This document shows, in pieces, positions 7,368-52,815 of a stretch of DNA of 64,000 nt (position 1 is the first letter of the stretch; every line of letters begins with the position of its first letter). Origin of the DNA: a virus; IMG/VR virus record IMGVR_UViG_3300042879_003514, positions 31,303-95,302 of that record; one strand, written 5' to 3'. Under the pieces are notes generated by a model, which saw nothing but the letters and a program-made list of their open reading frames with translations, had not been told where the DNA came from and searched no databases. A program made the translations under genes and the position numbers.

Positions 7368-9560
7368 ATGTCTGCTCTTCAAGAATTACAAAACTATACA
7401 TTTGTTAGTAAATATGCTCGTTGGCTAGAGGATAAGAACCGTCGTGAAACGTGGAAAGAGGCGGTTGAACGAGTAAAAAATATGATGCATACCAAGTATA
7501 GTGAATTTGGTATAGCAGATGATATTGATTGGGCTTATGATGTAATGTATAAGAAGCGTGTTCTTGGTAGTCAAAGAGCATTACAGTTTGGTGGCGAACC
7601 AATATTAAAGCGTCATGCTAAAATTTATAACTGCACAGCAAGTTATTGTGATCGACTAAGATTCTTTCAAGAATGTTTCTGGCTATTACTATGTGGTAGC
7701 GGCACAGGATTTAGTGTGCAAAAGCACCATATATCTAAACTACCATCATTAGAACACGATGTGGAAGATGGTAAAGGACGAGTATATTTAGTTGAAGATA
7801 GTATTGAGGGTTGGGCTAATAGTCTTGGTGTTCTATTGAGTAGTTATTTTAATAAACCGGTTGAAGAATTCAAAGACTGGAAAAATACTCATGTTATATT
7901 TGACTTTTCACAAATTCGTCCAAAGGGATCATCGTTAGCCAGTGGTGTTGGCAAAGCCCCAGGATATGAGCCACTAGCAAATGGTTTAGAAAAAATACGA
8001 GCACTACTTGATCGTTGTATTAATAATGGTCAAAAGAAACTAAGACCCATTGATGCTTATGATATTGTGATGCACAGTAGCGATGCTGTATTAAGTGGTG
8101 GTGTTAGAAGAAGTGCCTCATTAGCGTTGTTTAGTCCTAATGATGAAGAAATGGCCAAAGCCAAAACTGGCAATTGGTATATTGATAATCCACAACGAGC
8201 ACGAAGTAATAACTCAGCCCTCTTGCTAAAAAGTGAAACAGAGTTTGAAGAATTTAAGGTTTTAATGGAGAGTGTTAAGGAGTTTGGTGAGCCAGGATTT
8301 ATTTGGAGCGAATCCACAGAAATGATTTTTAATCCTTGTGTGGAAATTGGCATGTGGCCTGTTGATGAAGAAAGCGGTAAAAGTGGGTGGCAAGGCTGCA
8401 ATCTATCAACCATCAACTGCTCTAGCGTAACCGATGAAGATGATTTTTATGAAAGATGCAGAGCAGCAGCAATTATTGGCACTCTACAAGCTGGTTTTAC
8501 TAAATTAGAATATCTTGGTGAAATTAGCCAAAAGATTTTTGAAAGAGAAGCCTTGCTTGGCGTTTCTTTAACAGGCACAATGGAAAAGCACGAACTTGTA
8601 TTGACCGAAAAGGTTTTAACAAGGGGTGCTAAGATTGCTGTGGAAACAAACAAGGAATTGGCCAAAAAGATTAAAATTAATCAAGCGGCCAGAGTAACCT
8701 GTTTAAAGCCAGAAGGCACCAGCAGTAGTATGCTTGGAACCAGTTCTGGTATTCATCCTCATCACGCTAAACGCTATATACGCCATGTACAGGCAAATGT
8801 TTTAGAAGCACCATACCAGCACTTTAAGAAATTAAACCCACAAGCGTGTGAGAAGTCTAGTTGGTCAGCCAACAACACAGACGAAGTGGTAAAGTTCCCA
8901 ATTGAGGTTCCAGACGGAGCCAAATTAAAGAACCAATTGCCAGCAGTCGATATGCTTAAAGTGGTCAAAGAAACTCAAAAGAACTGGGTTCATTCTGGTA
9001 AAAATCGATCATTATGCACCCAAGATTATTTGAGTCATAATGTTAGCAATACTGTTACGGTCAAACCAGATGAATGGGAAGATGTTACCAAATTTATTTA
9101 TGATAATCGTAAATATTTTGCTGGTATTAGTCTTATTCCCCAAAGTGGAGATAAAGATTATCCTCAAGCACCATTCACAACTGTTTATACAAGCAGAGAA
9201 ATTGTTAAAGAATATGGTGATGCGGCATTATGGTGTTCTGGTTTGATCGAATTAGGCTTAAATGCTTTTAATAATAATTTGTGGGCCGCTTGTGATTATG
9301 TTAGTATGAATCAAGCAAAAGAGAATGATAGTCAGGATAGGTTATTATTTGTGACTAAAATGAAAAATTTTGCTGGTAAATATTTCAATAGTGACCTTAA
9401 ACGTCTAACATATTGCATGAAAGATGTTTATAATTGGAAGATCTATTGTGATCTATTTAATAGTTTCAAGAAGGTTGATTATACGCAACTATCAGAGACT
9501 GAGGACAATACAGTAGGAATTGAAGAAATTAGTTGCGCCGGTGGTGCTTGTCTAATTTAA
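7368..9560 (+). CDS. adenosylcobalamin-dependent (class II) ribonucleotide reductase
   Basis: A 730-residue enzyme of the monomeric RTPR type (Lactobacillus leichmannii enzyme is 739). It reduces ribonucleotides to deoxyribonucleotides using B12. Visible motifs are NPCVEI (Asn322, thiyl Cys324, Glu326), active-site disulfide candidates Cys89 (YNCTA) and Cys344 (GWQGCNL), the RPKGSSLASG and SGGVRRSA loops, and KPEGTSSSMLGTSSGIHPHH. The C-terminal CAGGAC pair (Cys723, Cys728) takes electrons from thioredoxin. No small subunit or activase gene is nearby, as expected for class II. AGGAGA lies upstream of the ATG. It is co-transcribed with dCMP deaminase. Confidence 0.93.
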   Translation: MSALQELQNYTFVSKYARWLEDKNRRETWKEAVERVKNMMHTKYSEFGIADDIDWAYDVMYKKRVLGSQRALQFGGEPILKRHAKIYNCTASYCDRLRFFQECFWLLLCGSGTGFSVQKHHISKLPSLEHDVEDGKGRVYLVEDSIEGWANSLGVLLSSYFNKPVEEFKDWKNTHVIFDFSQIRPKGSSLASGVGKAPGYEPLANGLEKIRALLDRCINNGQKKLRPIDAYDIVMHSSDAVLSGGVRRSASLALFSPNDEEMAKAKTGNWYIDNPQRARSNNSALLLKSETEFEEFKVLMESVKEFGEPGFIWSESTEMIFNPCVEIGMWPVDEESGKSGWQGCNLSTINCSSVTDEDDFYERCRAAAIIGTLQAGFTKLEYLGEISQKIFEREALLGVSLTGTMEKHELVLTEKVLTRGAKIAVETNKELAKKIKINQAARVTCLKPEGTSSSMLGTSSGIHPHHAKRYIRHVQANVLEAPYQHFKKLNPQACEKSSWSANNTDEVVKFPIEVPDGAKLKNQLPAVDMLKVVKETQKNWVHSGKNRSLCTQDYLSHNVSNTVTVKPDEWEDVTKFIYDNRKYFAGISLIPQSGDKDYPQAPFTTVYTSREIVKEYGDAALWCSGLIELGLNAFNNNLWAACDYVSMNQAKENDSQDRLLFVTKMKNFAGKYFNSDLKRLTYCMKDVYNWKIYCDLFNSFKKVDYTQLSETEDNTVGIEEISCAGGACLI

Positions 9561-14658: not shown

Positions 14659-16125
14659 ATGATTTTGGCTGACCCGTCGGCAGAAAGAGCCGTATTGTCT
14701 GGTATCTGTAAATTTGGCGAAGAAGTTTATCTTGATATAGCAGATATTCTACAAGAGTCATCGTTTACCGTTGATAGTAATGGTATCATATTTAAGTGCA
14801 TCAAAGAGATTTGCGAAAAGAATCAATCTAAATCTATAGATATAGCATCAATTTATTCTGTTGCTCAAGACCTTGGAGTGTCTCATGTATTATCAAGAAA
14901 AGAAGAGGCTCAACATTTAAAGGCTATTATTGATTTTCCTGTTAATATAGAGAACATTCCCAAGTTCGCTGCTAAAATTAGAAAATTACAAATAGCAAGA
15001 TTACTGTATGAGCAACTAGATAAAGCTAAAGAAAAATTATTAGATGTAACTGGTAGCGAACCAGTAACAAGTATAATATCAATTGCTGAAGACACAGTAT
15101 TTGATTTTACATCATTAATTAATGATACAGATAATAATCCTGTGTGTATAGGTAATGATTTAGAAGCATATATTCAAAATTTAATTGATAATCCAATTGA
15201 TCAAGTTGGTATTCCTACGGGATTTCCTGTTTATGATCAGGCTATTGGTGGTGGTTTAAGAAGAAGCACAGTTAATGTTATTGCCGCCAGACCTAAAACC
15301 GGAAAAACATTATTGGTTGATAATATGGGATTTTATATTGCAAATAAATTAAAAATACCTGTATTGAATATGGATACAGAAATGACTAAAGACGATCATA
15401 TTAATCGTATTTTAGCAATGATAACGGAAACAGAAATCAATAATATAGAAACTGGTAAATTTGCAAATTCTCAAGACAAGAAAAAGAAGATTGAAAATGC
15501 TGTAAAAGAACTATTAAATACAAAATTATTTTATAAGTCTATTGCTGGAAAGCCTTTTGAGGAGCAATTGGCTTTAATGCGTAGATGGATTGTGAAAGAA
15601 GTTGGTCTTGAGGATGATGGAACAGCAAAGCCATGTGTTATTTTTTATGATTATTTGAAGCTTATGGATAGTTCTGGAATGAGTCAAGATCTTAAAGAGT
15701 ATCAAGTTCTAGGCTTCATGATGACCTCATTACATAATTTTGCAACTAGATATAAAGTACCGGTTGTGGCTTTTGTCCAATTAAATAGAGATGGTATTAC
15801 TAAAGAAAGCACAGATACAGCAAGCGGCTCGGACAGAATTATTTGGCTATGTAGTAATTTTACCATTTTCAAAAGAAAGTCTGATGAAGAAATTGCAGAA
15901 GATGGTCCTAATGAGGGTAATAGAAAATTAATTCCAGTGATAAGCCGTCATGGTGGTGGTCTTGATGATAACGACTATATTAATTGTCACATGAAGGGCT
16001 GGTGTGCAAAAATTACCGAAGGACGAACTAAACTAGAAATTGCTAATAATATTAACCAACAAAACACAAGTAATGGATTTATTTTAGATGACAACTCAAA
16101 TGACAAAAACATCCCCTTCGTATAA
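14659..16125 (+). CDS. dnaB: replicative DNA helicase, DnaB-like
   Basis: A 488-residue hexameric helicase. An N-terminal helical domain (about 1-110) begins DPSAERAVLSGICKF. The RecA-type motor domain has Walker A AARPKTGKT (209-217), a DTEMTKDDHINR block, and a Walker B strand VIFYDYLKLMD. FVQLNRDG and the arginine-finger-like SGSDRIIWLCSN come later. It unwinds the fork ahead of the polymerase. AGGAGG is a very good binding site. It overlaps the primase by 38 bases, a natural pair. Confidence 0.92.
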   Translation: MILADPSAERAVLSGICKFGEEVYLDIADILQESSFTVDSNGIIFKCIKEICEKNQSKSIDIASIYSVAQDLGVSHVLSRKEEAQHLKAIIDFPVNIENIPKFAAKIRKLQIARLLYEQLDKAKEKLLDVTGSEPVTSIISIAEDTVFDFTSLINDTDNNPVCIGNDLEAYIQNLIDNPIDQVGIPTGFPVYDQAIGGGLRRSTVNVIAARPKTGKTLLVDNMGFYIANKLKIPVLNMDTEMTKDDHINRILAMITETEINNIETGKFANSQDKKKKIENAVKELLNTKLFYKSIAGKPFEEQLALMRRWIVKEVGLEDDGTAKPCVIFYDYLKLMDSSGMSQDLKEYQVLGFMMTSLHNFATRYKVPVVAFVQLNRDGITKESTDTASGSDRIIWLCSNFTIFKRKSDEEIAEDGPNEGNRKLIPVISRHGGGLDDNDYINCHMKGWCAKITEGRTKLEIANNINQQNTSNGFILDDNSNDKNIPFV

Positions 16126-40567: not shown

Positions 40568-43500
40568 TTATAGATTAATAATACTATCAGAGAGTTTAAA
40601 CCAATTATTATCCCCACCATGTACTATGGTTATATTATAGCCACCAGGCAATGTATGAAACGCACTTATCAAATCAGAAGATTTGTATATAGATATATTA
40701 TAAAATGATGAATTAATATTAACAATAGTAAATTTTTTACCCATATATAATCCTGTGCCATTTGGTAGATAAAGATTTGTGGCTCCAGAAGGATATAGAA
40801 ATTGATATTCAGCATCATTAGCAGATAAATACTTTGGAGTTACTGGAACACCAGAGGTTGCTAATGTTTCATATCTAAGTTTACTGTTAACATATGGATT
40901 ATTAGAATCATTTTGATAAATTATTTTATGTATTTGATTAACTCCAGTTGGCATAACAGATGGAGTTATATTTAATCCTGTTGGCGTTGTTAGAAAATTA
41001 AAAGTTAATCCACTGTTAGTAATTAGATTACCACTAGAAATTATATTTTGAAAAATTCCAGTTAAACCTAGTACAACATTACCAGAAGCAAAACTAAAGT
41101 TTGCATTACCAGAAGCTGTTAGGTTATTAGTAATTATATTAGAGCTAAAAATACCAGTTCCAGAACATACTAAGTTGGTTCCTATGGTTATACCAGAATT
41201 TGTAATAATATTTCCAGAACTAATTAAATTACCACCAATAGTAACTCCAGAGTTTATAATAGCATTACCAGATACTAGGATATTTCTATTAAATACAAAG
41301 TTTTCAGAACTGCTTTTGATAATCGATCCACTTGGATCTAGTATAATATGATTTTGATTATTAACATATAAACGAATACTGTTGTTACCGCTAAATGAAA
41401 CCGATTCATTATTAGATAATATAATATTGCTATTACCACTAGATGTGATACCAGAACCAACTAAAATATTAGAATTTCCAATAGAATTAGATAAATTAGC
41501 AAGAATGACTGAGTTATTACCAGAAATATCTGATGAAGAACCGAATATGAAATTAGACAATCCACTTGTGGAAGAATTATCCCCAACAAGAATATTATTA
41601 TTTCCAGATGAATATAGTCTTGATCCAACAAGAAATCCTCCATCACCATATAATTCATTATTATAACCAAATAAAATACCAGTATCAGATATTGTTCCAA
41701 GATTACCAACCCCAAGAGCAAACAATGTTGCAGATATATCTGTGTTTGATACGTTATTGCTACGCCCAAAAGCAACAGAGCCATTGGCTGTAACAGTATT
41801 ACTTTCTCCGATACCAACAGAATAGTCTCCATGAACGCCGTTTAAGTAACCACATGAAACTGAGTATAGTCCGTTATTAGCATTGTCGATACCAATTGAG
41901 ATGCCATAGTCTTCATCAATAGTGTTGCTATTACCAACAATAACAATTCCCATATTGCCACTAGTTAAACAACTATTATCACGACCAATTATTGTGTTAT
42001 CAATGCCAGAACATGTGATATTTTTGCCGAATAAAATATTATTAGTACCAGTCGCCTGAATATCTCTACCAAATATAAAATTACCACTATTAATTATATT
42101 ATTATTAAATCCATAAATAACATTATTGCCTGAATAATTATTAACTCCTATTGTTAGATTATTATTAGATAAATCAAGTATATTAAGCAAGGATCCTGTT
42201 GAGGCGATTTTGCAAATAAACTTTGAATTTTCATTTCCATTAGTTGTGTTATTGATATTAGAAGATAAAACTAAACCGGTCTTAGATACGCCACTAGAAT
42301 TTACAAACTTAAAAACAATATTTTCATTAATACCAGAAGATAAAATAGAGGTATTATCAATAATAAAATTAATATCATTATTAGATAGTGTTGAATATAC
42401 TAAAGATCCCGAGCCACCTAAACTTAAATTAGTATTATCATTTAATGCTAAGTAAACACTATTGCTGCCAGTAACACTAACTCCAGAACCTCCAAATACC
42501 CAGATATTATTTCCAGAGGCGGTGTGGTTAAGACCAAATAATCCGCCGTATGTTCCAGATGATAGGATTAAAGAATCTCCAATAGCTATACTATTTTCTG
42601 CACAAATATTATGGAATGATCCTATAACAATATTATTTCCTTCATTAGATGAGGCGCTTCCTATTACAACACCATTAGTATTTTGGTTATTAAATCCAAG
42701 AACTACTCCGTCAGAACTAAAAACTGCAACATCTTCGTTAGATCCATTATTAAGAGCCTCTATATGAATAGAAGAATTTTCACTAGAATTTAGGGCCGAG
42801 TCAATAATAGAATAAATTCTATTATAGCTAACACTACTATTACTACTATTTAATCCAGAGAATACTATAGAGCCAACTATATTATTTGTTGTTATTCCGC
42901 TTTGAGAATTATTAGAAAAAACTATTTTTGGACCAGAACCGCTGTTGTATATAGTGAGTCCATTTCCACCACTAGCATTGATAGTTAAAATATCATTTGG
43001 ACTAGATGAGTTAATGCCAATTTTATTAGTACTACCATCAATAAAAAACATGTGGGTTCTACCAGTACCCTCAACTCTAAAACTATTAGCATGAGACTGT
43101 TCGTTAAATACTGTGGTGGAGCCAATATATCCTGGTAGAATATTATGAGCGGTAGAAATATTTCCAGTACCACCAATTAATATGGCTTCATTAACACGAT
43201 CCCAACTCAACGCATTTGTGCCACTAAATGCACTATCATATTTAAATTGTATTGCGCCATTATTGCCATATGGATAAGAAGATTCTAAGATAGGATCAAG
43301 AGTTACCCATCCGCTCTGAGATGGAACAGAAACTATTTGTAGATAATCTTTTATAATAGAAATATCATAGGTTCCCGTACCATTAATAGTTTGAGATGAG
43401 TCTGGAGTTAATAGAATAGCATTTGCTTGTTCGTATTGATTGCCTATTGTTTTATCAAGCACAAAGCCTAATACAATTGGATCAGATCCTGATGTTACAG

Positions 43501-43933
43501 GTGGTAAAGAAACAGTTACACCCGAAACAGATGAGTCTACTATATATGTTGCGGATACGTTGGGTGCTGTGAAACTTGCGTTTTTTTCTTCTAAATTAAT
43601 ATTATTTAATGAATTTGAACTATCGCTACTAATAATACTTTCTATATATTTAGTACCAGAAGTAAAGCTTACTAAACTATTACTACTGCTTGAAGATATA
43701 ACTTTCTCTCTGACCAAAATATTTAAGCCACCACTAACCTGAATGTACCCAACACCAATTTCCCACTCAAAATTAGTATCTAGTCTATAAATATAGTAAT
43801 TAAATTTATTAGATGATCCTAATGCTGATACAAATGTGCGAAATCCTAGTGGTGCGCCATTAAGCACAAAATTTCCAGTGCCAGTTGATACAGAAGTTTC
43901 TTGAACTTTATTCGCATAGTATTTAATTGACAT
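40568..43933 (-). CDS. tail fibre/adhesin with YadA-head-like repeats
   Basis: A 1,121-residue protein, Asn/Ser/Gly/Ile-rich. From about residue 415 to 850 it has many short repeats of the form SGNNxIxxGxxxxxSG (for example TSGNMGIVIVGNSN, GDYSVGIGESN, NGSVAFGRSNNV). These match the left-handed beta-roll head repeats of YadA-type trimeric adhesins. The N-terminus MSIKYYANKVQETSVSTGTGNFVLNGAPLGFRTF looks like a common phage tail-fibre attachment segment. It is probably a trimeric fibre for host adhesion. AAAAGGGGA precedes the ATG. Confidence 0.78.
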   Translation of the reverse strand: MSIKYYANKVQETSVSTGTGNFVLNGAPLGFRTFVSALGSSNKFNYYIYRLDTNFEWEIGVGYIQVSGGLNILVREKVISSSSSNSLVSFTSGTKYIESIISSDSSNSLNNINLEEKNASFTAPNVSATYIVDSSVSGVTVSLPPVTSGSDPIVLGFVLDKTIGNQYEQANAILLTPDSSQTINGTGTYDISIIKDYLQIVSVPSQSGWVTLDPILESSYPYGNNGAIQFKYDSAFSGTNALSWDRVNEAILIGGTGNISTAHNILPGYIGSTTVFNEQSHANSFRVEGTGRTHMFFIDGSTNKIGINSSSPNDILTINASGGNGLTIYNSGSGPKIVFSNNSQSGITTNNIVGSIVFSGLNSSNSSVSYNRIYSIIDSALNSSENSSIHIEALNNGSNEDVAVFSSDGVVLGFNNQNTNGVVIGSASSNEGNNIVIGSFHNICAENSIAIGDSLILSSGTYGGLFGLNHTASGNNIWVFGGSGVSVTGSNSVYLALNDNTNLSLGGSGSLVYSTLSNNDINFIIDNTSILSSGINENIVFKFVNSSGVSKTGLVLSSNINNTTNGNENSKFICKIASTGSLLNILDLSNNNLTIGVNNYSGNNVIYGFNNNIINSGNFIFGRDIQATGTNNILFGKNITCSGIDNTIIGRDNSCLTSGNMGIVIVGNSNTIDEDYGISIGIDNANNGLYSVSCGYLNGVHGDYSVGIGESNTVTANGSVAFGRSNNVSNTDISATLFALGVGNLGTISDTGILFGYNNELYGDGGFLVGSRLYSSGNNNILVGDNSSTSGLSNFIFGSSSDISGNNSVILANLSNSIGNSNILVGSGITSSGNSNIILSNNESVSFSGNNSIRLYVNNQNHIILDPSGSIIKSSSENFVFNRNILVSGNAIINSGVTIGGNLISSGNIITNSGITIGTNLVCSGTGIFSSNIITNNLTASGNANFSFASGNVVLGLTGIFQNIISSGNLITNSGLTFNFLTTPTGLNITPSVMPTGVNQIHKIIYQNDSNNPYVNSKLRYETLATSGVPVTPKYLSANDAEYQFLYPSGATNLYLPNGTGLYMGKKFTIVNINSSFYNISIYKSSDLISAFHTLPGGYNITIVHGGDNNWFKLSDSIINL
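41380..42690 (-). repeat. coding repeats of YadA-head type
   Basis: Roughly 14-17-residue units with alternating SG/NN turns and hydrophobic strands (N-I-I-G, S-V-A-F-G), degenerate at DNA level. They lie inside the 1,121-residue tail adhesin gene. Confidence 0.6.
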
Positions 43934-43950: not shown

Positions 43951-46900
43951 TTAAGTTTGAACAATATTTAATGATCCAGCAGTTGCTTGGTTGATCGCAA
44001 GAGCTATCTTATCAAATACAGATTTTTGTATATTTTCTGCGTTAGTTTCATCAAGATTTCCTGCTCCTGGACCTTCTAATGTTACTGTTATTGTTCCATT
44101 TACTGGTATGGATCCTTGTGCTGTTAGTGTTATTGTGGATGGTATACGAGAGATTACACCGGCTAATTCTGTTACTGATGAACTAAATGGACCAATTTGA
44201 CCTTGTAGTATTGATGACGCATCTTTTATTGACACTGCTGCTAAGTTTAATGATCCTGCTGATGTTGTTAGATCAATTTGTGATAAAGATGATGCAACAT
44301 CAGATAGACCACCAAGTTTAGATGCTGCTTCATTAAATGCTCCAACAAATCCTCCAAAAGAACCAACATATGTTTGAAAATTACTAAATGCGGTATCCAA
44401 AGATGATGAGTCAACACTAATACTAGATACACCACCAGAAGTTGTGGGACTGGCTACTGGTCCAGCAGTTTCGTAGTATTGTGTATCTACAATACCCCCT
44501 TTATTAAATCGTTTTGGACTTATTGTTTGACCATTATTAATAGCTTTGAGAAGACCCATATTTTGTTTGGCCGCTTTTCTATTAATTACAAATTCGCCAG
44601 GAGTTAACATGGCCGGAACAGTATCTGTGCCTCGTGGTTGATATGGTACTAGCTTTCCTTGTGAAGCATATATTAATCCACCATTTGCTCTGGTTGTAGC
44701 ATTTAGAGCCCCTTTTCTTTTTCTATATTCTTCTGGTGCTCCTGGTAATACTTTTCCACTAAAAGGATCGACATTGCTTGATTGTGGTGATACAAATTGT
44801 CCTGTTACTGGGTCTCTTGGACTAGTTGTACGAGAGGGGGGTCGGGATAGAACATATCTTCCTCCTACTCTTCTTTGAGAAGCTGGATTCCTTAAATAAC
44901 TCGATATTTGTTGTTCTGTTGGCGTTCCTGTTCTAAATGGATCATTGGGATTATTAGGATATAATTCATCAAACCTGCTAAATATGTCATCATCAGGTTC
45001 TGGTCCTAAATTAGGTATATCTAAATCATCACCAACAGTTGGTATTCTGTCCATCTGTTGCATTAGAGCATCATTAACTGCATTTGTTCTTACTTGTTCT
45101 GCAAGATTAGGGAGCGGTGTTTGTTGTAATGCGCCTCTCACCTTATCTGCTGATTTTTCAGCCATATTATTCAATGGGTTTCTAATAAATGGTGGTCTAA
45201 CCTTTGGTGGTGGTTGGAAAACCATGCTGGGGAACTTTGGTCCAGTGGGGCTAGGAGTTAATGCTCCTACTGCTTTTGGTAATCCTCTGGCGCTTAACCT
45301 AGCAGCATCATCAATAAAACCAGCTCCAGGAATAACAGCGCTAACATCTGTGGCGGCCCCTACTACCGTCTCTCCTGCTGTTTGTCCAATAGAATCATAG
45401 AATTGAGCACTTTTTTGTTCTGGACTAGCATTTGGGTCTAATGGTTTTTGACTTAATCCACCACCATAAGCATTAACATTATATGTAGAATTAGCGCCTG
45501 TTAATATCCTTTGTAAAAAATCTTTGGGTTTTCTATGAGGAACTTTTCTTTCTAAGATACTATCTTTATTTCTTGGATGAGCTATTTGATAACCTAAATT
45601 ATAAACGGCTGTTCCAAAGTTTCTCGAACCAGCACCAATTAAACCAGCAACTTCAGAAACAAACGAGTCAGAGGCGTTTCGTCTTTTACTATTTCTACTA
45701 CCTTGGATTACATCTCTTACTATTGGTAATTTTGATAAAGTATCAAACATTTGCTTATTTGCCACATCAGTATCAAAATATGGATTAAATTGTCCATTAA
45801 ATGTTTCTATTTCTCTATCAAATCCAGCTTCTTTAATTCTTCTTTTTCGTTCTTCATTTGATGCGGCTATTCTATTTGTTGTCGTAGCGCCTCTTTGAGC
45901 AGCGTTCTGTCTAGCTCTAGCTATAATATCAGCAACAGAAGCATCTAGACTAGCTTGGTCTTCAAAACTTGGGGTCATGAAGAAACTATCCATCTCTGCT
46001 TGTGCAAGTTCTAATAGATTTTCTGATCCACTAGGGTCTAGCTCTGTAACTTTTCGTTGTAGAGCGCGTGTTACTGCTCTTTCTGGAGAAAATGCGTCCT
46101 CTCTTATCTTTCTATTGTATTCTATTTGTTCAATCGGAGATAAAAGATTAAATTCTTCTTTTCTTTTTTGTTCTTCGGTTATTGGTGCAGCATTTTGAGC
46201 TGCTTTTTCTCTAGCAGCTTGATCTGTTTTGCCTCTTTCAACTAAAAACTCGTTAAAACGAACAAAAGGAAATGGTGTTCCTGGGCCGCGACCAGCCCTT
46301 TTTTGTTCTTCCATCTGAGATTCTGTTAAGAATTGATAATCTATTGATCTTAAACCATACTTCTGCTCTCTTTCAAGTCGTGCTGCTTCAGCATCAGCAA
46401 TTTGTTTATTTCTAGCAGCTTGCTCTTCTGGTGTTCCTCGTGTTCTGAGAGTTATTTCAGCCTTTTCAGCTTCTAGTTTTGTCGCTCTCTTTTGTTCAAG
46501 AGCTTGTGCTTCCGCAGCATTTTTTGCTGATCTTTGTCTGAATTGATAGTCACCAATATAAGCATCAAGGTATGCTTGTTGTTCTGGTTTTAAATTATAG
46601 TATCCTTGGGGTCTTCCTCGATTAGCCTCTAGGTCTGTAAGAATATCGTCTGTGCTAGCATTAGAATATCTAGTTCCAGAACTAGTATACATTTGATTAA
46701 AATATACTCTTCCAGAATCCAATTGTGATTTTTCAGCTGCTGTTTTTTGATTTTTTTGAGTTCGTTCTCTGTCTTGAGCTTCTTTTTGACTTGAAGCTTC
46801 TCGTCTTTCTTCTAGTTTTGCCTTATAGTCAGCAGATGGTTCGCTTGCTCTTTGAAAATCTCTTAGTCCTTCTTGTTTTGATTCTATAGAAACGGCCTTG

Positions 46901-49900
46901 TCTTTTTGATATTGTTCAGATGCTTTGTATCTCTCAATAATTGTTTTAAGATCAGCTGTGAAACCAACACCTGGATTATCCATAAATCCGCCTCTGACCC
47001 ACCAATTTTGAGCAGATTCAATGGTCTGAGCGCTATCCTCAGATCCGCTCAAGCCCATAGCTTTGTTTGCTAAAGCTCTTTGCTCTTCTGCTCTTTTCCT
47101 TTCAGCATCTCTTCTGGCGGCTTCTGGAAGTCTTGAGATATTTGTCGCTACTCTGGCTGCTCTTTCCTGTTCTGCTGCTTCTTTTCTTGCTCTTCTCTCA
47201 TCTTCTAATCTTTCTTTAGGAGTTCTATTATTTAATCTTACTTGTTCTGCGGCTACAGCATCTGCTCTTCTTTGTTGTTCTTGTAATCTAGCATTCTTCT
47301 GTCTTTCTTCATAGGCTTCTATTCTTTTTTGATCCCTATCATCGTCTTCTTTTAGTTGTTTTGTGGCTCTTGCTTTATAGTCAGCATCGCTTTCTCCTTC
47401 ATTTCTTGGTATATTCTTTATTCTTTCATTAGTATCTGTCTCCATGCGTGTTTTAAGATCAACCTTCTTTTGTTCATAATTCAATGCTTCTTGTGCTTCT
47501 GTCTTTCTACGGAGAAGTTCCGTATATTCATTAGTTAGGCTTCTATCTTTATTAATTTTTTCTATTCCTACTTTTTGTCTATCCAAAGCTGCTTGATCTT
47601 TTGGATCTTCTATTACAGAATCTGTCCATTCTTGAATATATAGCCTTGTTTGGTTAACATACTCTGCAATTTGAGCATTTATTTCATCAAGTCTAGCCTT
47701 AGCTGCTTCTACTAATCCACCACCTTGTAAATAAACCATTCCACCCATACTATATCCTGCGGCCTTACCATTACTATTTATAGCTTTTAATAAAGAGAGA
47801 TTTTTCTTAGTAGCTTTAGCGTTAACAACAAACTCACCAGGAGTTAACATCGCAGGAACAGTATCAGTGCCCTTTGGCTGAAAATTAACATACTTACCAC
47901 GAGCAGCATATATTAAACCACCATTAGCTTTGGTCGTAGCAGTTGCAGATCCTGTGGTTGTTGTATTGTCTGCTGCGTTTGTAACTTTATCTGCAAAATA
48001 ATTTGCACTACCTTTTATAGCGGTTTCGAATATTCCGGCTGCCTCTAAACTTCTGCTTGCAAGAGCCTCATTAGCAGCTGCCATTGCTTTTATAGCATCA
48101 TTATATTCCTTAATAAAGTCAGAAACATTATATTCTGGAGCTTCTAATGTTTGCTTCACAGCATTAGCAAGATCAGCAGGAAGCATTTGAAAAATTTGTT
48201 CAAGAAAATCTCCTCTAGTTTTTAAAGCATCATCTGCTGTTTGTCCTCTCATTTTAATTTGTAATGCTTGTATGGCTCCTGGGATATCAAAACTATTCCC
48301 TTGACCAGCCATAATATTAGAAAATTTTTGTTGATTCATTATAAAATCTGTCATATATTCTGGATTATTAACATTAGATAATAAATCCATAAGAACATCA
48401 GTTCTTCCTTGTTTAGCCTTTTGAACCTCTTCTATCTTACTTAGCGCATTTGATGCTCTAGAAGAATCTGTGGCCAATTGCTTTAATGCTTTTTCTAAAT
48501 TAGTTGCTTGAGCATTAACTTGAGCAAATCTTACTTCTTCTTGAGGGGTTCTATTTTTATTTTCGTTTAATCTTTTTTGTTCTTCTTCTGTTTGTCTAAG
48601 TCTTGCTTCAATTGTTGCAACATCTGTTGTGCCACCATACGACTCAAATACTTGGGGACCACCTCTTCTATTATCACCAGCAAAAGTAACTCGCGTAAGA
48701 GATCTAATAGCATTATTAAAAGATTGATTTAACTGGTCTAATGCTACCGGTTCATTAAGAGTTTGAGATAATCTTAAAGAGCCTTCTGTTCTTGCTGACA
48801 CTGCCGCATTACTATATTCTTGAGCTAACACAAGACTTTCTGAGAGTTTAGAACCAAACCTTGTCACTTCTGCTGCTACTTCATTAGCAGCCTCACTCAT
48901 TTTATCAAGTTCACTAGATGATATGCCAACAGTATCAAAAAACTTTTGTAAGCCAGGATTATTTTTTGCTAACTCTGATAGTGTAACATCCGCACCACTT
49001 CCACTAAGATTATTAAATTCTCTTCTTAGGTCTTCTAAGATGGGAGGTAAAGAAGTTTTTGATAGTTTTAGTGGAGCAAGCAATTCTCTGATTGCTTTAT
49101 CAAACTCTCCACTAACATCTCCACCTGTACCTGACTTAACGGATAATGAACCAAATATACCCTGTATACCTTTTTCTAAGTTTTGTTTTACTGAAACCCT
49201 TTCTTTGGTTTGCTGTGTAAATTCAGGACTAAAATTTAATCTACTAGCTAAATTATCAATAGCTGATGATACTTCAGCCTGTGAATATGCTCTTAGATTT
49301 TTGAATATCTCTGTGTCTATTTTATTAGGTCTAGGCTGGAATTCACCACCGCCCTTAATGCCAACCTCAGCATTTATGTCTTGTACGTATTGACTAAATT
49401 CAGAGGATGCTCTTTGCACAGATGATACTGTATTCTGTAAGCTTTGAGAATACTGATTTGATGACTCAATTAGTTGTTTATTTATAGCTATATTTTGCTG
49501 TTTTGCTGTACTTTCTGCTTTATATGCTTCTACTAATCTACTAGTTGTTAATGCTATAGCTTGTTTAATTTCTGCTTCTTTTTTATTTCTTACAGTTTCT
49601 GGTAAAGTACGATCAGATTGTACAGCAGCTAATTTTGCTTCCAAATCTGTTATTGCTGAACCACCTCTGGCTATGGCAATATCTCTATCAGTTGCTCCAA
49701 CAGCAGTTCGTGCTTGATCAAAAGTTAACCCCCTTTTCAAAGCTTCTGATATTCCTTTTTGAGCAGCTTCGGCGGCTGGTCTGGCTGCTGATTCTAACTC
49801 TTTACTATATGATAATTCTTCTCGTTTGTCCATTTTGCCTATTCCAGTATCAACCAGATTAAGCATTGCAGCTTCAACAACTGTTCCTATAGCAGAGTAA

Positions 49901-52815
49901 ACTTGTCCTTCTATGGTTGCTGTTGGAACAAATTCTTCTGTTTTTGCCTGAGATATAACTTGTCCAGCATTTCTCAAGCCATCTATCGTGGTTCTAATCT
50001 CTCCAAATGAATCTGAGGTTGCATTAGTAGTTTTTGATAATCTTTCAAAAGCCTGACCAAGATTAGTTGATAATGTTTCAATTGATTTTTGAGCAGAAGA
50101 TACTCTTATTTCTCTAAGAGAAGCTAAATATGCTGATGCTGCCCCGGCAACAGCAGCAAGACCTACGGCAACAGCCTTCAACTGTGGGGGTAGGAACGAT
50201 AATGAGTCTACAACAGTTTTTGTAACTCCTGCTGCGCCAGCACCACCAGCAACAGCAGCACCCAACGCAGGAGCACCAGCCTTAGATAGTAAATCACCAG
50301 CTACTCCAGCTCCTAAAAGAAGACTAGTAGGACTTAGACCAGCGTCCTTTGCGGCCTTTTCTCGTCCTATTATATCTCTTCTTTCTGCTCTATCGTATCC
50401 TTGTGCTTTTAATTGTCTGGCTCTTTGTAATGTGTTGGTATCCGTTAATTGTTTAAACGACTGAATTACTTTATTAATAGATGATGTTAGCGAATCAAAA
50501 ATAGATGCGCCACCACCAGCAGCATAAGACTGAACAAAGCCAACAGAACCACCTTTATTATATCCACGAATTTTATCAGCATTATTTAATCTATTTAATT
50601 TATGATGGCCAATTCTTTGTGCTGCTTTTTTATTGATAACAAATTCACCAGGAGTTAGGAGTGCTGGAACAGTGTCATCAACCGATCCGCCACCAGCTAA
50701 TTTAGTATATTTTTCTGATGGTTTGTATTTAGCAAGATTGTATGCTATTCCGATATTTCCCAATTGAATCGAGTCTGCTTTTTGATTTTTTTTCTTTGTG
50801 AATCGTTTAATATAGTCTGTTTGCCCATCCTCAAGATAATATCTCATTAACTTATCTGCTAAAACAAAATCTGGAGTTCTTTCAGATCTATTTCTAACCT
50901 CAACTGGTCCTTTACCAGTGCCTATAATATCTACTGGATAATTACCGCCTTTATGAGTACCACGACCCAATTTGTCTTTAACTAATTTTTCGAATGTGTT
51001 TGATTGAACATCTTTGGAGGATTGAAGACCATATATAGTTTTATTAAAATTAATTGTATCTATACTATCTAAATTTTCTTCTACATACTTCTTCATTTTC
51101 ATGCTGTATAGTTTTTGTGGAGACACAGGGCCTCCACCAGCATATTTATTCATCTTATGTAGATTATTAATACCAATAGTCTCAACAGCTTTCTTTCTTA
51201 TAACAAACTCACCTGGAGTTAACATCGCTGGCACAGTATCTCCACTACCACCACCAGGAACCAATCCTCCTCTAGCAAATCTGCGTCTACCACCACCACC
51301 TAGGGACGAAGATAAACCGCTAACAAAGCTACCAATATTACTAATTCCTTTAACAGCAATAATAGCTGTCAATGCTGGTAAAACACTCTTTGCAGCATCA
51401 GCTATAGATATTAAAGCGCTAGCTAATTTTAATGATATATCTACAAAAGTTTGAAAGCCTTTGCTTTGTCCAACATCACGAACAAGACTAACAAATTGCT
51501 CTCTTACCTTTGTAATCTTAACCCCAAGTCCTTCTTGTGCTGTAGCAACGTCTTTGGCTAATGATCCAGCGCCTCTTTGAGCAACATTTAATGCTTCTTG
51601 AGCTGTTGCAAATTGCTGAATTAATGGAATAACCTTACCAACCTGACGAAAACCACCCAGTTCTTCTATAATAGCAGAAAACCTAATATCTCTTGTATCC
51701 AATTTACTTAGTCCATCACTAAGTCTTCTTACAGCTTCATAGGCTCCTACGAATTTACCTTCAACATCAGTTAATTCAACACCATATTGTTTAAGAGCTT
51801 CTATTGTACCTCCTCGTTGTATACGACTAAAAATAGTACGTAAACCTGTAGCAATAGTTTCCGCACTTTCACGAGTAGTTGCTCTTACGCTTGTAAATAC
51901 TGCTATAAATTCATTTAAAGCGTCTTTACCTTGGCTTACACCCTGACTAGCAGAAGCAAAAACACCGCCAGTTCTTTGGATAGCAGTGATAATATCACTC
52001 GCTTCAACAGCAAATTTAGCAGCAACTGCATTGATTGAGCCCAATGCGCTTTCTAAATCATTTGCGCTAATTCCGAACTGTTTCATTAGAGCAATACTGC
52101 CCTCAACTGTGCTATTCATATCATCAAAAGACGGAGCTAAAGATGACTTTGCCAATGCTTCTAAAGCAGTTTTAGTTTCTGCCGCAGATAAGCCTGCCTG
52201 AGATAGTGTTACTGATACTTGAAGTAGAGATTGAGATGTAACACCCAAGCCTTGTGATAATCTTACAATTTCTTGAGACAATCCTTTAAGACCAGTTGCT
52301 GTTTCAAATGTGACTTGTTGCAGTCTAATAAATTCTTTATTAAAATTTAAAAATTCACTATATGCTGAACCAAAAGCTTTTGCAATAGCATATATGCTTC
52401 CTGTTACTATAGAAAACGCGGCAAATCTACGAACAGCCAACCCGGCTTGCCTACCAAATGCTTCAATTTCAGATGTAGCCTCTGCTGTTCTTGTTCTAAC
52501 ATTATTAATAGCATTATTAGCATTATTAAGATTATTGCCTAAGTTTCCAATATTTGTGGAAGCACTACCAATACCAGCTCCTAGTGTTCTCAAAGCAGAA
52601 TTAAGAGAAGCAGCGTTTGATTCAGCATCCCTTAATGCTCTGCTTAAATTATTTATATTAGAAGTAATTCCCTGTATATTACTAGACGCTCTAGGGTCTA
52701 TTTTCAGATCTAAACTTACAGTAGATAATTGTTTACGTATATTTCCAACAACTTGATTAAGATTACTAGGTCCTCTTAAATTAAGTTCTGCTGTTAAGTT
52801 AAAAGATGATGCCAT
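43951..52815 (-). CDS. tail tape measure protein, 2,954 residues
   Basis: The largest gene of the window. Residues about 150-480 form the TP901-type tape measure domain (RLQQVTFETATGLKGLSQEIV, LYD-like GLRTIFSRIQRGGT). Hydrophobic segments at about 828-895 are expected to help genome passage through the host membrane. A charged coiled-coil region spans about 1,720-2,240. A motif DTVPAMLTPGEFVI plus basic residues occurs four times (near 51,225, 50,660, 47,855 and 44,610). Between the first two copies lies an inserted globular domain with PVDII..PVEVRNR. Using the usual rule of about 0.15 nm per residue the tail would be near 440 nm. GGTGA precedes the ATG. Confidence 0.92.
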   Translation of the reverse strand: MASSFNLTAELNLRGPSNLNQVVGNIRKQLSTVSLDLKIDPRASSNIQGITSNINNLSRALRDAESNAASLNSALRTLGAGIGSASTNIGNLGNNLNNANNAINNVRTRTAEATSEIEAFGRQAGLAVRRFAAFSIVTGSIYAIAKAFGSAYSEFLNFNKEFIRLQQVTFETATGLKGLSQEIVRLSQGLGVTSQSLLQVSVTLSQAGLSAAETKTALEALAKSSLAPSFDDMNSTVEGSIALMKQFGISANDLESALGSINAVAAKFAVEASDIITAIQRTGGVFASASQGVSQGKDALNEFIAVFTSVRATTRESAETIATGLRTIFSRIQRGGTIEALKQYGVELTDVEGKFVGAYEAVRRLSDGLSKLDTRDIRFSAIIEELGGFRQVGKVIPLIQQFATAQEALNVAQRGAGSLAKDVATAQEGLGVKITKVREQFVSLVRDVGQSKGFQTFVDISLKLASALISIADAAKSVLPALTAIIAVKGISNIGSFVSGLSSSLGGGGRRRFARGGLVPGGGSGDTVPAMLTPGEFVIRKKAVETIGINNLHKMNKYAGGGPVSPQKLYSMKMKKYVEENLDSIDTINFNKTIYGLQSSKDVQSNTFEKLVKDKLGRGTHKGGNYPVDIIGTGKGPVEVRNRSERTPDFVLADKLMRYYLEDGQTDYIKRFTKKKNQKADSIQLGNIGIAYNLAKYKPSEKYTKLAGGGSVDDTVPALLTPGEFVINKKAAQRIGHHKLNRLNNADKIRGYNKGGSVGFVQSYAAGGGASIFDSLTSSINKVIQSFKQLTDTNTLQRARQLKAQGYDRAERRDIIGREKAAKDAGLSPTSLLLGAGVAGDLLSKAGAPALGAAVAGGAGAAGVTKTVVDSLSFLPPQLKAVAVGLAAVAGAASAYLASLREIRVSSAQKSIETLSTNLGQAFERLSKTTNATSDSFGEIRTTIDGLRNAGQVISQAKTEEFVPTATIEGQVYSAIGTVVEAAMLNLVDTGIGKMDKREELSYSKELESAARPAAEAAQKGISEALKRGLTFDQARTAVGATDRDIAIARGGSAITDLEAKLAAVQSDRTLPETVRNKKEAEIKQAIALTTSRLVEAYKAESTAKQQNIAINKQLIESSNQYSQSLQNTVSSVQRASSEFSQYVQDINAEVGIKGGGEFQPRPNKIDTEIFKNLRAYSQAEVSSAIDNLASRLNFSPEFTQQTKERVSVKQNLEKGIQGIFGSLSVKSGTGGDVSGEFDKAIRELLAPLKLSKTSLPPILEDLRREFNNLSGSGADVTLSELAKNNPGLQKFFDTVGISSSELDKMSEAANEVAAEVTRFGSKLSESLVLAQEYSNAAVSARTEGSLRLSQTLNEPVALDQLNQSFNNAIRSLTRVTFAGDNRRGGPQVFESYGGTTDVATIEARLRQTEEEQKRLNENKNRTPQEEVRFAQVNAQATNLEKALKQLATDSSRASNALSKIEEVQKAKQGRTDVLMDLLSNVNNPEYMTDFIMNQQKFSNIMAGQGNSFDIPGAIQALQIKMRGQTADDALKTRGDFLEQIFQMLPADLANAVKQTLEAPEYNVSDFIKEYNDAIKAMAAANEALASRSLEAAGIFETAIKGSANYFADKVTNAADNTTTTGSATATTKANGGLIYAARGKYVNFQPKGTDTVPAMLTPGEFVVNAKATKKNLSLLKAINSNGKAAGYSMGGMVYLQGGGLVEAAKARLDEINAQIAEYVNQTRLYIQEWTDSVIEDPKDQAALDRQKVGIEKINKDRSLTNEYTELLRRKTEAQEALNYEQKKVDLKTRMETDTNERIKNIPRNEGESDADYKARATKQLKEDDDRDQKRIEAYEERQKNARLQEQQRRADAVAAEQVRLNNRTPKERLEDERRARKEAAEQERAARVATNISRLPEAARRDAERKRAEEQRALANKAMGLSGSEDSAQTIESAQNWWVRGGFMDNPGVGFTADLKTIIERYKASEQYQKDKAVSIESKQEGLRDFQRASEPSADYKAKLEERREASSQKEAQDRERTQKNQKTAAEKSQLDSGRVYFNQMYTSSGTRYSNASTDDILTDLEANRGRPQGYYNLKPEQQAYLDAYIGDYQFRQRSAKNAAEAQALEQKRATKLEAEKAEITLRTRGTPEEQAARNKQIADAEAARLEREQKYGLRSIDYQFLTESQMEEQKRAGRGPGTPFPFVRFNEFLVERGKTDQAAREKAAQNAAPITEEQKRKEEFNLLSPIEQIEYNRKIREDAFSPERAVTRALQRKVTELDPSGSENLLELAQAEMDSFFMTPSFEDQASLDASVADIIARARQNAAQRGATTTNRIAASNEERKRRIKEAGFDREIETFNGQFNPYFDTDVANKQMFDTLSKLPIVRDVIQGSRNSKRRNASDSFVSEVAGLIGAGSRNFGTAVYNLGYQIAHPRNKDSILERKVPHRKPKDFLQRILTGANSTYNVNAYGGGLSQKPLDPNASPEQKSAQFYDSIGQTAGETVVGAATDVSAVIPGAGFIDDAARLSARGLPKAVGALTPSPTGPKFPSMVFQPPPKVRPPFIRNPLNNMAEKSADKVRGALQQTPLPNLAEQVRTNAVNDALMQQMDRIPTVGDDLDIPNLGPEPDDDIFSRFDELYPNNPNDPFRTGTPTEQQISSYLRNPASQRRVGGRYVLSRPPSRTTSPRDPVTGQFVSPQSSNVDPFSGKVLPGAPEEYRKRKGALNATTRANGGLIYASQGKLVPYQPRGTDTVPAMLTPGEFVINRKAAKQNMGLLKAINNGQTISPKRFNKGGIVDTQYYETAGPVASPTTSGGVSSISVDSSSLDTAFSNFQTYVGSFGGFVGAFNEAASKLGGLSDVASSLSQIDLTTSAGSLNLAAVSIKDASSILQGQIGPFSSSVTELAGVISRIPSTITLTAQGSIPVNGTITVTLEGPGAGNLDETNAENIQKSVFDKIALAINQATAGSLNIVQT

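What the first reader, a model, noticed from the sequence alone, without database searches (positions are those of the whole stretch)
44588..51243. DTVPAMLTPGEF motif repeated four times through the tape measure
Copies near 51,225, 50,660, 47,855 and 44,610 keep DTVPA(M/L)LTPGEFV(I/V) plus a basic helix (KKA..IG..LHKMN or KA.K.N..LLKAIN) and a Gly-rich end. Three thousand residues apart at most, they mark boundaries between otherwise dissimilar segments. The motif is known in single copy in other tape measures; four spaced copies suggest modular growth by recombination at these sites or repeated binding sites for a tail or host factor.
Basis: partly seen in the sequence, partly recalled or inferred. 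Interest (0 to 1): 0.5.

Follow-up and report, generated by a model that had tools for sequence, protein, structure and literature searches.

The report
Tape-measure boundary motif framing exchangeable cargo
The protein that sets this virus's tail length carries four copies of one small element, and comparison with related viruses shows that such copies mark the edges of swappable blocks, some of which look like enzymes that could be injected into the bacterial host.

Summary
Confirmed: a 2,954-aa tape measure protein (TMP) carries four copies of DTVPA(M/L)LTPGEFV(I/V). Their DNA is only 50-63% identical, so selection keeps the protein sequence.

Multicopy is common in environmental phages (1-8 per TMP) and rises with TMP length in two samples (rho 0.78, n=39; rho 0.54, n=45). 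The first copy follows the N-arm, the last sits about 110 aa from the C-terminus, and length varies between them. In three close pairs DNA homology stops within 25 nt of the end of copy 1 and resumes within 15 nt of the start of copy 2; in the closest pair the enclosed block is 21% identical between flanks at 88-96%.

The element occurs once in lambda gpH and TM4 gp17. Reading: an old TMP joint element, duplicated to bracket exchangeable cargo. 29 of 52 independently sampled first slots show an FE...D...(D/E)xK signature; others are zincin-like or ADP-ribosyltransferase-like. A nuclease fold was not confirmed. Joint or processing site is unresolved.

The parts
43951..52815 (-). tape measure protein ORF, 2,954 aa
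   Evidence: ORF; PhageMin_Tail PF10145 at aa 181-386, E=2e-23; TMP PHROGs
51286..52815 (-). N-arm, aa 1-510, with the PhageMin_Tail core
   Evidence: 70% identical to L001
51130..51285 (-). motif copy 1, aa 511-562 (type 1)
   Evidence: hairpin plus two helices predicted
50707..51129 (-). slot-1 block, aa 563-703, FE...YPVDII...VEVR; cargo candidate, function not shown
   Evidence: related to the L001 block (E=5e-9) and the L141 block (E=7e-5); not tied to the larger domain group (hhalign probability 4.6%)
50548..50706 (-). motif copy 2, aa 704-756 (type 2)
   Evidence: hairpin plus two helices predicted
47911..50547 (-). segment 2, aa 757-1635; likely the tape proper, with a hydrophobic peak at aa 882-900
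   Evidence: near-constant length in relatives (CV 0.20, 17 TMPs) and hydrophobic peak; role inferred
47737..47910 (-). motif copy 3, aa 1636-1693
44671..47736 (-). segment 3, aa 1694-2715; no recognised domain in the window
   Evidence: no Pfam match here
44494..44670 (-). motif copy 4 (last), aa 2716-2774
43954..44493 (-). C-terminal tail after the last copy, aa 2775-2954; docking piece by analogy with lambda gpH
   Evidence: position; analogy from PMC10721106 passage

Best explanation
Each copy is a small autonomous element (Gly-rich lead, beta hairpin DTVPA..TPGEFV, two short helices, Gly-rich exit) related to the element found once near the C-terminus of lambda gpH and once in TM4 gp17. 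In this group of phages it was duplicated long ago and its copies became fixed boundaries inside the tape measure protein. SHOWN by sequence: order and position of copies are conserved; blocks between them, the first slot above all, are replaced between close relatives; length variation lies there; several blocks carry enzyme-like signatures. INFERRED: each copy is a joint that lets a folded cargo domain sit in or beside the helical tape without disturbing it, so that cargo leaves the tail with the tape measure at injection and can be exchanged as a cassette by recombination in the conserved boundary and flank sequence shared with another phage. The last copy separates the tape from the C-terminal piece that docks at the tail tip.
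For: Positional orthology of copies, 87 of 111. Length differences sit between first and last copy (slope 1.10, r2 0.93, 35 ORFs). L141/L134: N-arm 94%, copy 1 96%, slot 1 21%, copy 2 88%, copy 4 98%, C-arm 91%; homology edges at the copies in three pairs. 266 of 555 breakpoints within 30 aa of a copy edge, shifted-position control mean 57.9, max 81. Replication of the copy-length relation in a second sample. FE...D...(D/E)xK signature in 29 of 52 first slots against mean 1.3 in shuffles; HExxH 7 against 0.2 expected; ADP-ribosyltransferase in 2 of 52; glucosaminidase beside the copy in S-SCSM1. Element in lambda gpH, TM4 gp17 and three PDB TMPs. Predicted hairpin plus two helices in copies 1 and 2 (pLDDT about 80-88).
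Against: A conserved island makes edges by itself, which inflates. Segment 2 is about half-identical even in L141/L134, so not every block is simply swapped. In the last segment of that pair homology runs about 130-160 nt past the copies. The main slot-1 domain has no confirmed fold or function, and the window's own blocks have no recognised domain. Injection of cargo and the joint role are inferred.
Confidence: 0.6

Rival explanations
1. Processing site: a protease cuts the TMP at or beside each copy during tail maturation or injection, so a multicopy TMP is a polyprotein whose cargo is released as pieces.
For: T5 TMP is cut after R1127 (PMC10038345, passage), directly before a GG...GE element 92 aa from the end. 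Lambda TMP is also processed (same passage), and its copy ends 71 aa from the C-terminus. K/R lies within 5 residues before the GG in 150 of 227 copies, 108.8 expected. HExxH motifs occur in some blocks.
Against: The profile does not detect the element in T5 pb2, so the likeness is by eye. No single cut motif is shared by all copies and the basic-residue excess is modest. P23-45 TMP has metallopeptidase and RNA polymerase domains, was full-sized in virions (PMC10770324, passage) and lacks the element.
Confidence: 0.25
2. Repeated binding site for a tail-tube, hub or chaperone protein; copies grew in number to help assemble longer tails.
For: Copy number rises with TMP length. The last copy lies before the tail-tip docking piece in lambda.
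Against: Spacing is irregular: 141-1,618 aa between copies 1 and 2 in 17 TMPs. Up to 3,355 aa TMPs manage with two copies. Distinct positional types suggest distinct roles.
Confidence: 0.11
3. No cassette exchange: blocks between copies merely diverge fast while the motif is conserved, so copies look like boundaries.
For: Conserved islands alone create edges (the caveat); segment 2 looks like gradual divergence in part (profile).
Against: In L141/L134, with N-arm 94% and C-arm 91%, slot 1 is 21% identical and of different length, with edges at the copies. First slots hold different kinds of domain.
Confidence: 0.04

Closest known systems
Lambda tape measure protein gpH, element at aa 733-782
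   Same: Same element by profile (21.7 bits), before the C-terminal piece that docks at the tail tip (PMC10721106, passage)
   Different: One copy only in lambda-type TMPs; no cargo slot between copies
Mycobacteriophage TM4 gp17 with its peptidoglycan hydrolase motif mt3
   Same: Element at 703-750, with mt3 (around W853) after it (PMC1796659, passages); enzyme embedded in a TMP
   Different: One copy; the enzyme acts on the cell wall, while most blocks here have no cell-wall signature
T5 pb2
   Same: TMP cut after R1127 just before a GG...GE element near the C-terminus, separating an enzymatic part (PMC10038345, passage)
   Different: Not detected by the element's profile; single place
Thermus phage P23-45 gp96 (TMP fused to virion RNA polymerase)
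   Same: Giant TMP (5,002 aa) carrying enzymes, including a metallopeptidase (PMC10770324, passages)
   Different: No copy of the element by profile
Polyvalent proteins of phages and plasmids; Sle1-type TMP-like effectors
   Same: Multidomain injected proteins with zincins and ADP-ribosyltransferases (PMC5512222, abstract and passages); TMP-related effector with exchangeable functional domain (PMC13277306, abstract and passages)
   Different: The word 'tape' is absent from the main text of PMC5512222; Sle1 belongs to a contractile injection system, and the passages describe a C-terminal functional domain, not slots framed by copies

Membership tests
Phage tape measure protein (PhageMin_Tail type) | PhageMin_Tail core domain | tested here: met
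   PF10145, 83.7 bits against cut-off 33.2; TMP PHROGs
Phage tape measure protein (PhageMin_Tail type) | Length sets tail length | not testable with these tools
   needs electron microscopy
Lambda gpH / TM4 gp17 type C-terminal element | Match to the element's profile, with the GG...GE(F)V...helix layout | tested here: met
   profile of 262 copies matches gpH 733-782 (i-E 6.5e-6) and TM4 703-750 (1.7e-9), Z=1000; 26-row profile matches three PDB TMPs
Lambda gpH / TM4 gp17 type C-terminal element | Lies about 40-180 aa before the C-terminus | tested here: met
   last copy of the window ends 180 aa from the end; in 95 ORFs the 10-75% quantiles are 43-178 aa, with 75 of 95 in 30-215 aa
PD-(D/E)XK nuclease superfamily (slot-1 domain of relatives) | E...D...(D/E)xK signature | tested here: met
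   G, E and D invariant and K at least 90% in 26 sequences; 29 of 52 in an independent sample against 1.3 in shuffles
PD-(D/E)XK nuclease superfamily (slot-1 domain of relatives) | alpha/beta core with a mixed sheet | tested here: inconclusive
   AF2 model helical with no sheet, pLDDT 57-78 in the key part; no fold match
PD-(D/E)XK nuclease superfamily (window's slot-1 block) | E...D...(D/E)xK signature and tie to the group | tested here: inconclusive
   FE...YPVDII...VEVR, R in place of K; hhalign probability 4.6% to the group; related to L001, which has EVK
Polyvalent proteins | Several domains of unlike activity in one polypeptide | tested here: inconclusive
   signatures differ between slots and relatives, but in the window only the TMP core is recognised
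Polyvalent proteins | Injected into the host with the DNA | not testable with these tools
   needs ejection assays

The most novel reading that the evidence does not exclude
A large, mostly environmental group of phages uses the tape measure protein as a standard delivery chassis: a duplicated lambda-type element frames fixed slots into which host-directed enzymes (DNA-cutting, protease, ADP-ribosylating, perhaps NAD-related) are exchanged as cassettes, so that one tail protein is both ruler and multi-effector payload, cut or unfolded at its joints.
Probability: 0.35. Interest if true: 0.82.

Novelty: new variant of a known kind. Interest (0 to 1): 0.58.

Why it matters
Enzymes embedded in tape measure proteins are known one phage at a time. 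Here one conserved element predicts from sequence where exchangeable blocks begin and end, so cargo can be mined systematically. It offers a testable account of why TMPs reach 5,000-6,500 aa, and raises a clear question: does a long TMP mean a long tail or a heavy payload? Lambda and TM4 carry the same element, so its role can be tested in laboratory phages.

Tried and rejected
Gene conversion or recent duplication of copies inside one protein: rejected as the rule, though L138 copies 5 and 7 (0.89 identical to each other) look recent. Regularly spaced binding sites: rejected on spacing. Domain naming of the blocks: Pfam on 10 first slots, 44 segments, 8 proteins or segments and 52 first slots gave few hits, mostly under cut-off. 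PDB sequence searches with the slot-1 domain: nothing significant. Fold search of the slot-1 model: no PDB match, best Z 2.2 on a second look; viral library with the motif-plus-insert model: one significant hit, unnamed, weak TM-score. Search for relatives of the window's slot-1 block alone: none, but that scan also missed L001, which BLASTP ties to it, so it is insensitive. Megablast of the tail region in phage records: none. The control (44 segments) includes 3 first slots of ORFs with another layout (L137, L154, L158). P-loop motif counts were at chance overall (19 against 21.9). Literature: no held paper contains LTPGEF; searches joining tape measure with toxin, nuclease, polymorphic toxin, metalloprotease and ADP-ribosyltransferase terms and with repeats or conserved motifs showed in their listings no account of this motif as a cassette boundary. 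The library is open-licence PMC only, so this is weak evidence of absence. Papers behind PDB 8zdo and 8rk3 were not looked for.

Full report
CHECK. The four copies are real and where stated. The ORF at 43951-52815 (-) encodes 2,954 aa with a PhageMin_Tail core. D codons of the motif start at 51240, 50676, 47865 and 44625; a six-frame scan of the window finds no other. Four separate stretches match one PHROG, phrog_35029. Between copies the DNA is 50-63% identical over a 38-codon core, and where amino acids agree the codon agrees in 9/20, 12/16, 8/17, 9/16, 9/18 and 13/24 cases. The repeat is kept at the protein level. The window is the larger part of a 95,302-base virus record.

RELATIVES. The nearest relative found, the identical TMP of L001 and L002, is 3,956 aa with five copies; the extra length lies between copies. 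A profile search of 49 whole records and 35 fetched regions led to 125 distinct ORFs with the motif. Of 39 complete ORFs of at least 1,200 aa, 4 have one copy, 13 two, 8 three, 9 four, 4 five and 1 eight; copies and length correlate (rho 0.78). The first copy starts a median 618 aa from the start and the last ends a median 110 aa from the stop; in the 35 ORFs with two or more copies the middle takes up the length differences (slope 1.10, r2 0.93). Relatedness is not corrected for, and both samples were chosen by the motif.

POSITIONAL TYPES. For 111 copies from 28 ORFs with three or more copies, the best match outside the own protein has the same class for 23 of 27 first, 17 of 26 second, 23 of 30 middle and 24 of 28 last copies; 15 of 111 match best within their own protein. 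Duplication is therefore old, with later exceptions such as L138 copies 5 and 7.

BOUNDARIES. In L141/L134 the N-arm (94%), the copies (88-98%) and the C-arm (91%) are close, while slot 1 is 21%, segment 2 is 50% and segment 3 is 31% identical. DNA homology stops 4 nt before the end of copy 1 and resumes 15 nt into copy 2. In L147/L129 it stops 25 nt before and resumes 5 nt in; in L156/L160 it stops 1 nt before and resumes 2 nt in. Over 115 pairs of 41 ORFs with N-arms at least 55% identical, 266 of 555 identity breakpoints fall within 30 aa of a copy edge, against 57.9 on average (max 81) when copy positions are shifted; this larger test is weakened because a conserved island makes edges by itself. 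In 17 TMPs segment 2 is near constant in length (CV 0.20; 0.12 without L138) while slot 1 varies (CV 0.91). Working picture: N-arm, copy 1, cargo slot, copy 2, tape, copy 3, further segment, last copy, C-terminal tail.

CARGO. In an alignment of 18 first slots one E and one D align in all. A profile of the FE...FDF...DAK group found 19 loci in viral contigs; of 22 distinct domains 19 lie between two copies, two (L146, L063) are flanked by another repeated element and one (L167) has no detected copy. In the second sample 29 of 52 first slots match the pattern, against a mean of 1.3 (max 4) in shuffles and 4 of 44 mostly other segments. The profile is less sensitive there: 20 of 72 type-2 copies with enough upstream sequence. 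Other contents: HExxH motifs, 7 against 0.2 expected; ADP-ribosyltransferase exoenzyme in 2 of 52; DnaJ-like in L136, E=1e-5, just under cut-off; P-loop and HIGH-nucleotidyltransferase-like stretches in L148 and L154, under cut-off; a glucosaminidase after the copy in S-SCSM1. Against a nuclease reading: the AF2 model has no sheet, and there is no fold, PDB-sequence or Pfam match. The window's own block is related to that of L001 (E=5e-9) and L141 (E=7e-5), not demonstrably to the larger group (hhalign probability 4.6%), and has R for K.

WHAT THE ELEMENT IS. AF2 gives the same hairpin plus two helices for copies 1 and 2 (pLDDT about 80-88). A profile of 262 copies finds one copy in lambda gpH at 733-782 and in TM4 gp17 at 703-750, and none in T5 pb2, SPbeta YomI or P23-45 gp96. 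PDB chains of three TMPs match (8zdo twice, 8rk3, 8iyk). In lambda, gpH 818-842 forms the coiled coil at the tail tip (PMC10721106, passage), so the element lies shortly before the docking piece. In T5 the mapped cut after R1127 precedes a GG...GE element of similar layout, with 92 residues after the cut (PMC10038345, passage); the likeness is by eye. TM4's copy lies before its peptidoglycan hydrolase motif, whose removal shortens the tail (PMC1796659, passages). These place the element between tape and a functional part; joint, cut site or both is not decided. Basic residues before the GG are modestly enriched (150 of 227, 108.8 expected).

NOVELTY. Enzymes inside TMPs are known (TM4, T5, P23-45), as are injected multidomain proteins (PMC5512222, abstract and passages) and TMP-like effectors with exchangeable domains (PMC13277306, abstract and passages). 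What I found no account of, in the searches, is one conserved element, duplicated, that frames replaceable blocks in TMPs of many environmental phages. I file it as a new variant of a known kind.

Noticed in passing
L146 and L063, flanks of the FE...FDF...EAK domain: The same slot-1-like domain is flanked there by a different repeated element (GFIPNFA / VPNYA), perhaps a second boundary type.
   Followed up: partly
L148 slot 1 and L154 slot 1: A P-loop and a HIGH-nucleotidyltransferase-like stretch lie in the same TMP block, an order that recalls NadR; Pfam E 5.5e-4 and 0.0022, under cut-off.
   Followed up: partly
L136:2716-4065 (+): DnaJ-like stretch in the first slot of a 5,620-aa TMP, E=1e-5, just under cut-off.
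   Followed up: no
52 first slots (A9): Two of 52 blocks match ADPrib_exo_Tox (best 6.6e-6) and one matches ART; which members was not told by the tool.
   Followed up: no
L192, Methylolobus aquaticus strain FWC3 contig of 49,825 bases: A type-2 copy in the genome of a named, strain-level bacterium, a possible laboratory host for a multicopy TMP.
   Followed up: no
L125 (S-SM2 gp012) and L126 (S-SCSM1 gp213): Cyanophage proteins annotated as transmembrane protein or lysozyme carry the element and weak TMP PHROG matches; they may be tape measures, and phrog_35029 (unknown function) with them.
   Followed up: partly
window 40568-43933 (-): A 1,121-aa ORF next to the TMP is very rich in Asn, Gly and Ser with recurring SGNN-like units.
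   Followed up: no
window 7368-9560 (+) and 14659-16125 (+): Ribonucleotide reductase and DnaB-like helicase PHROG matches; 7 of the 8 other ORFs tested, all on the minus strand, had no PHROG match.
   Followed up: no
L022:2938-5367 (-): SHD1-like stretch in a TMP segment (E=0.0025); 2 of 44 segments match SHD1, best 2.2e-9.
   Followed up: no
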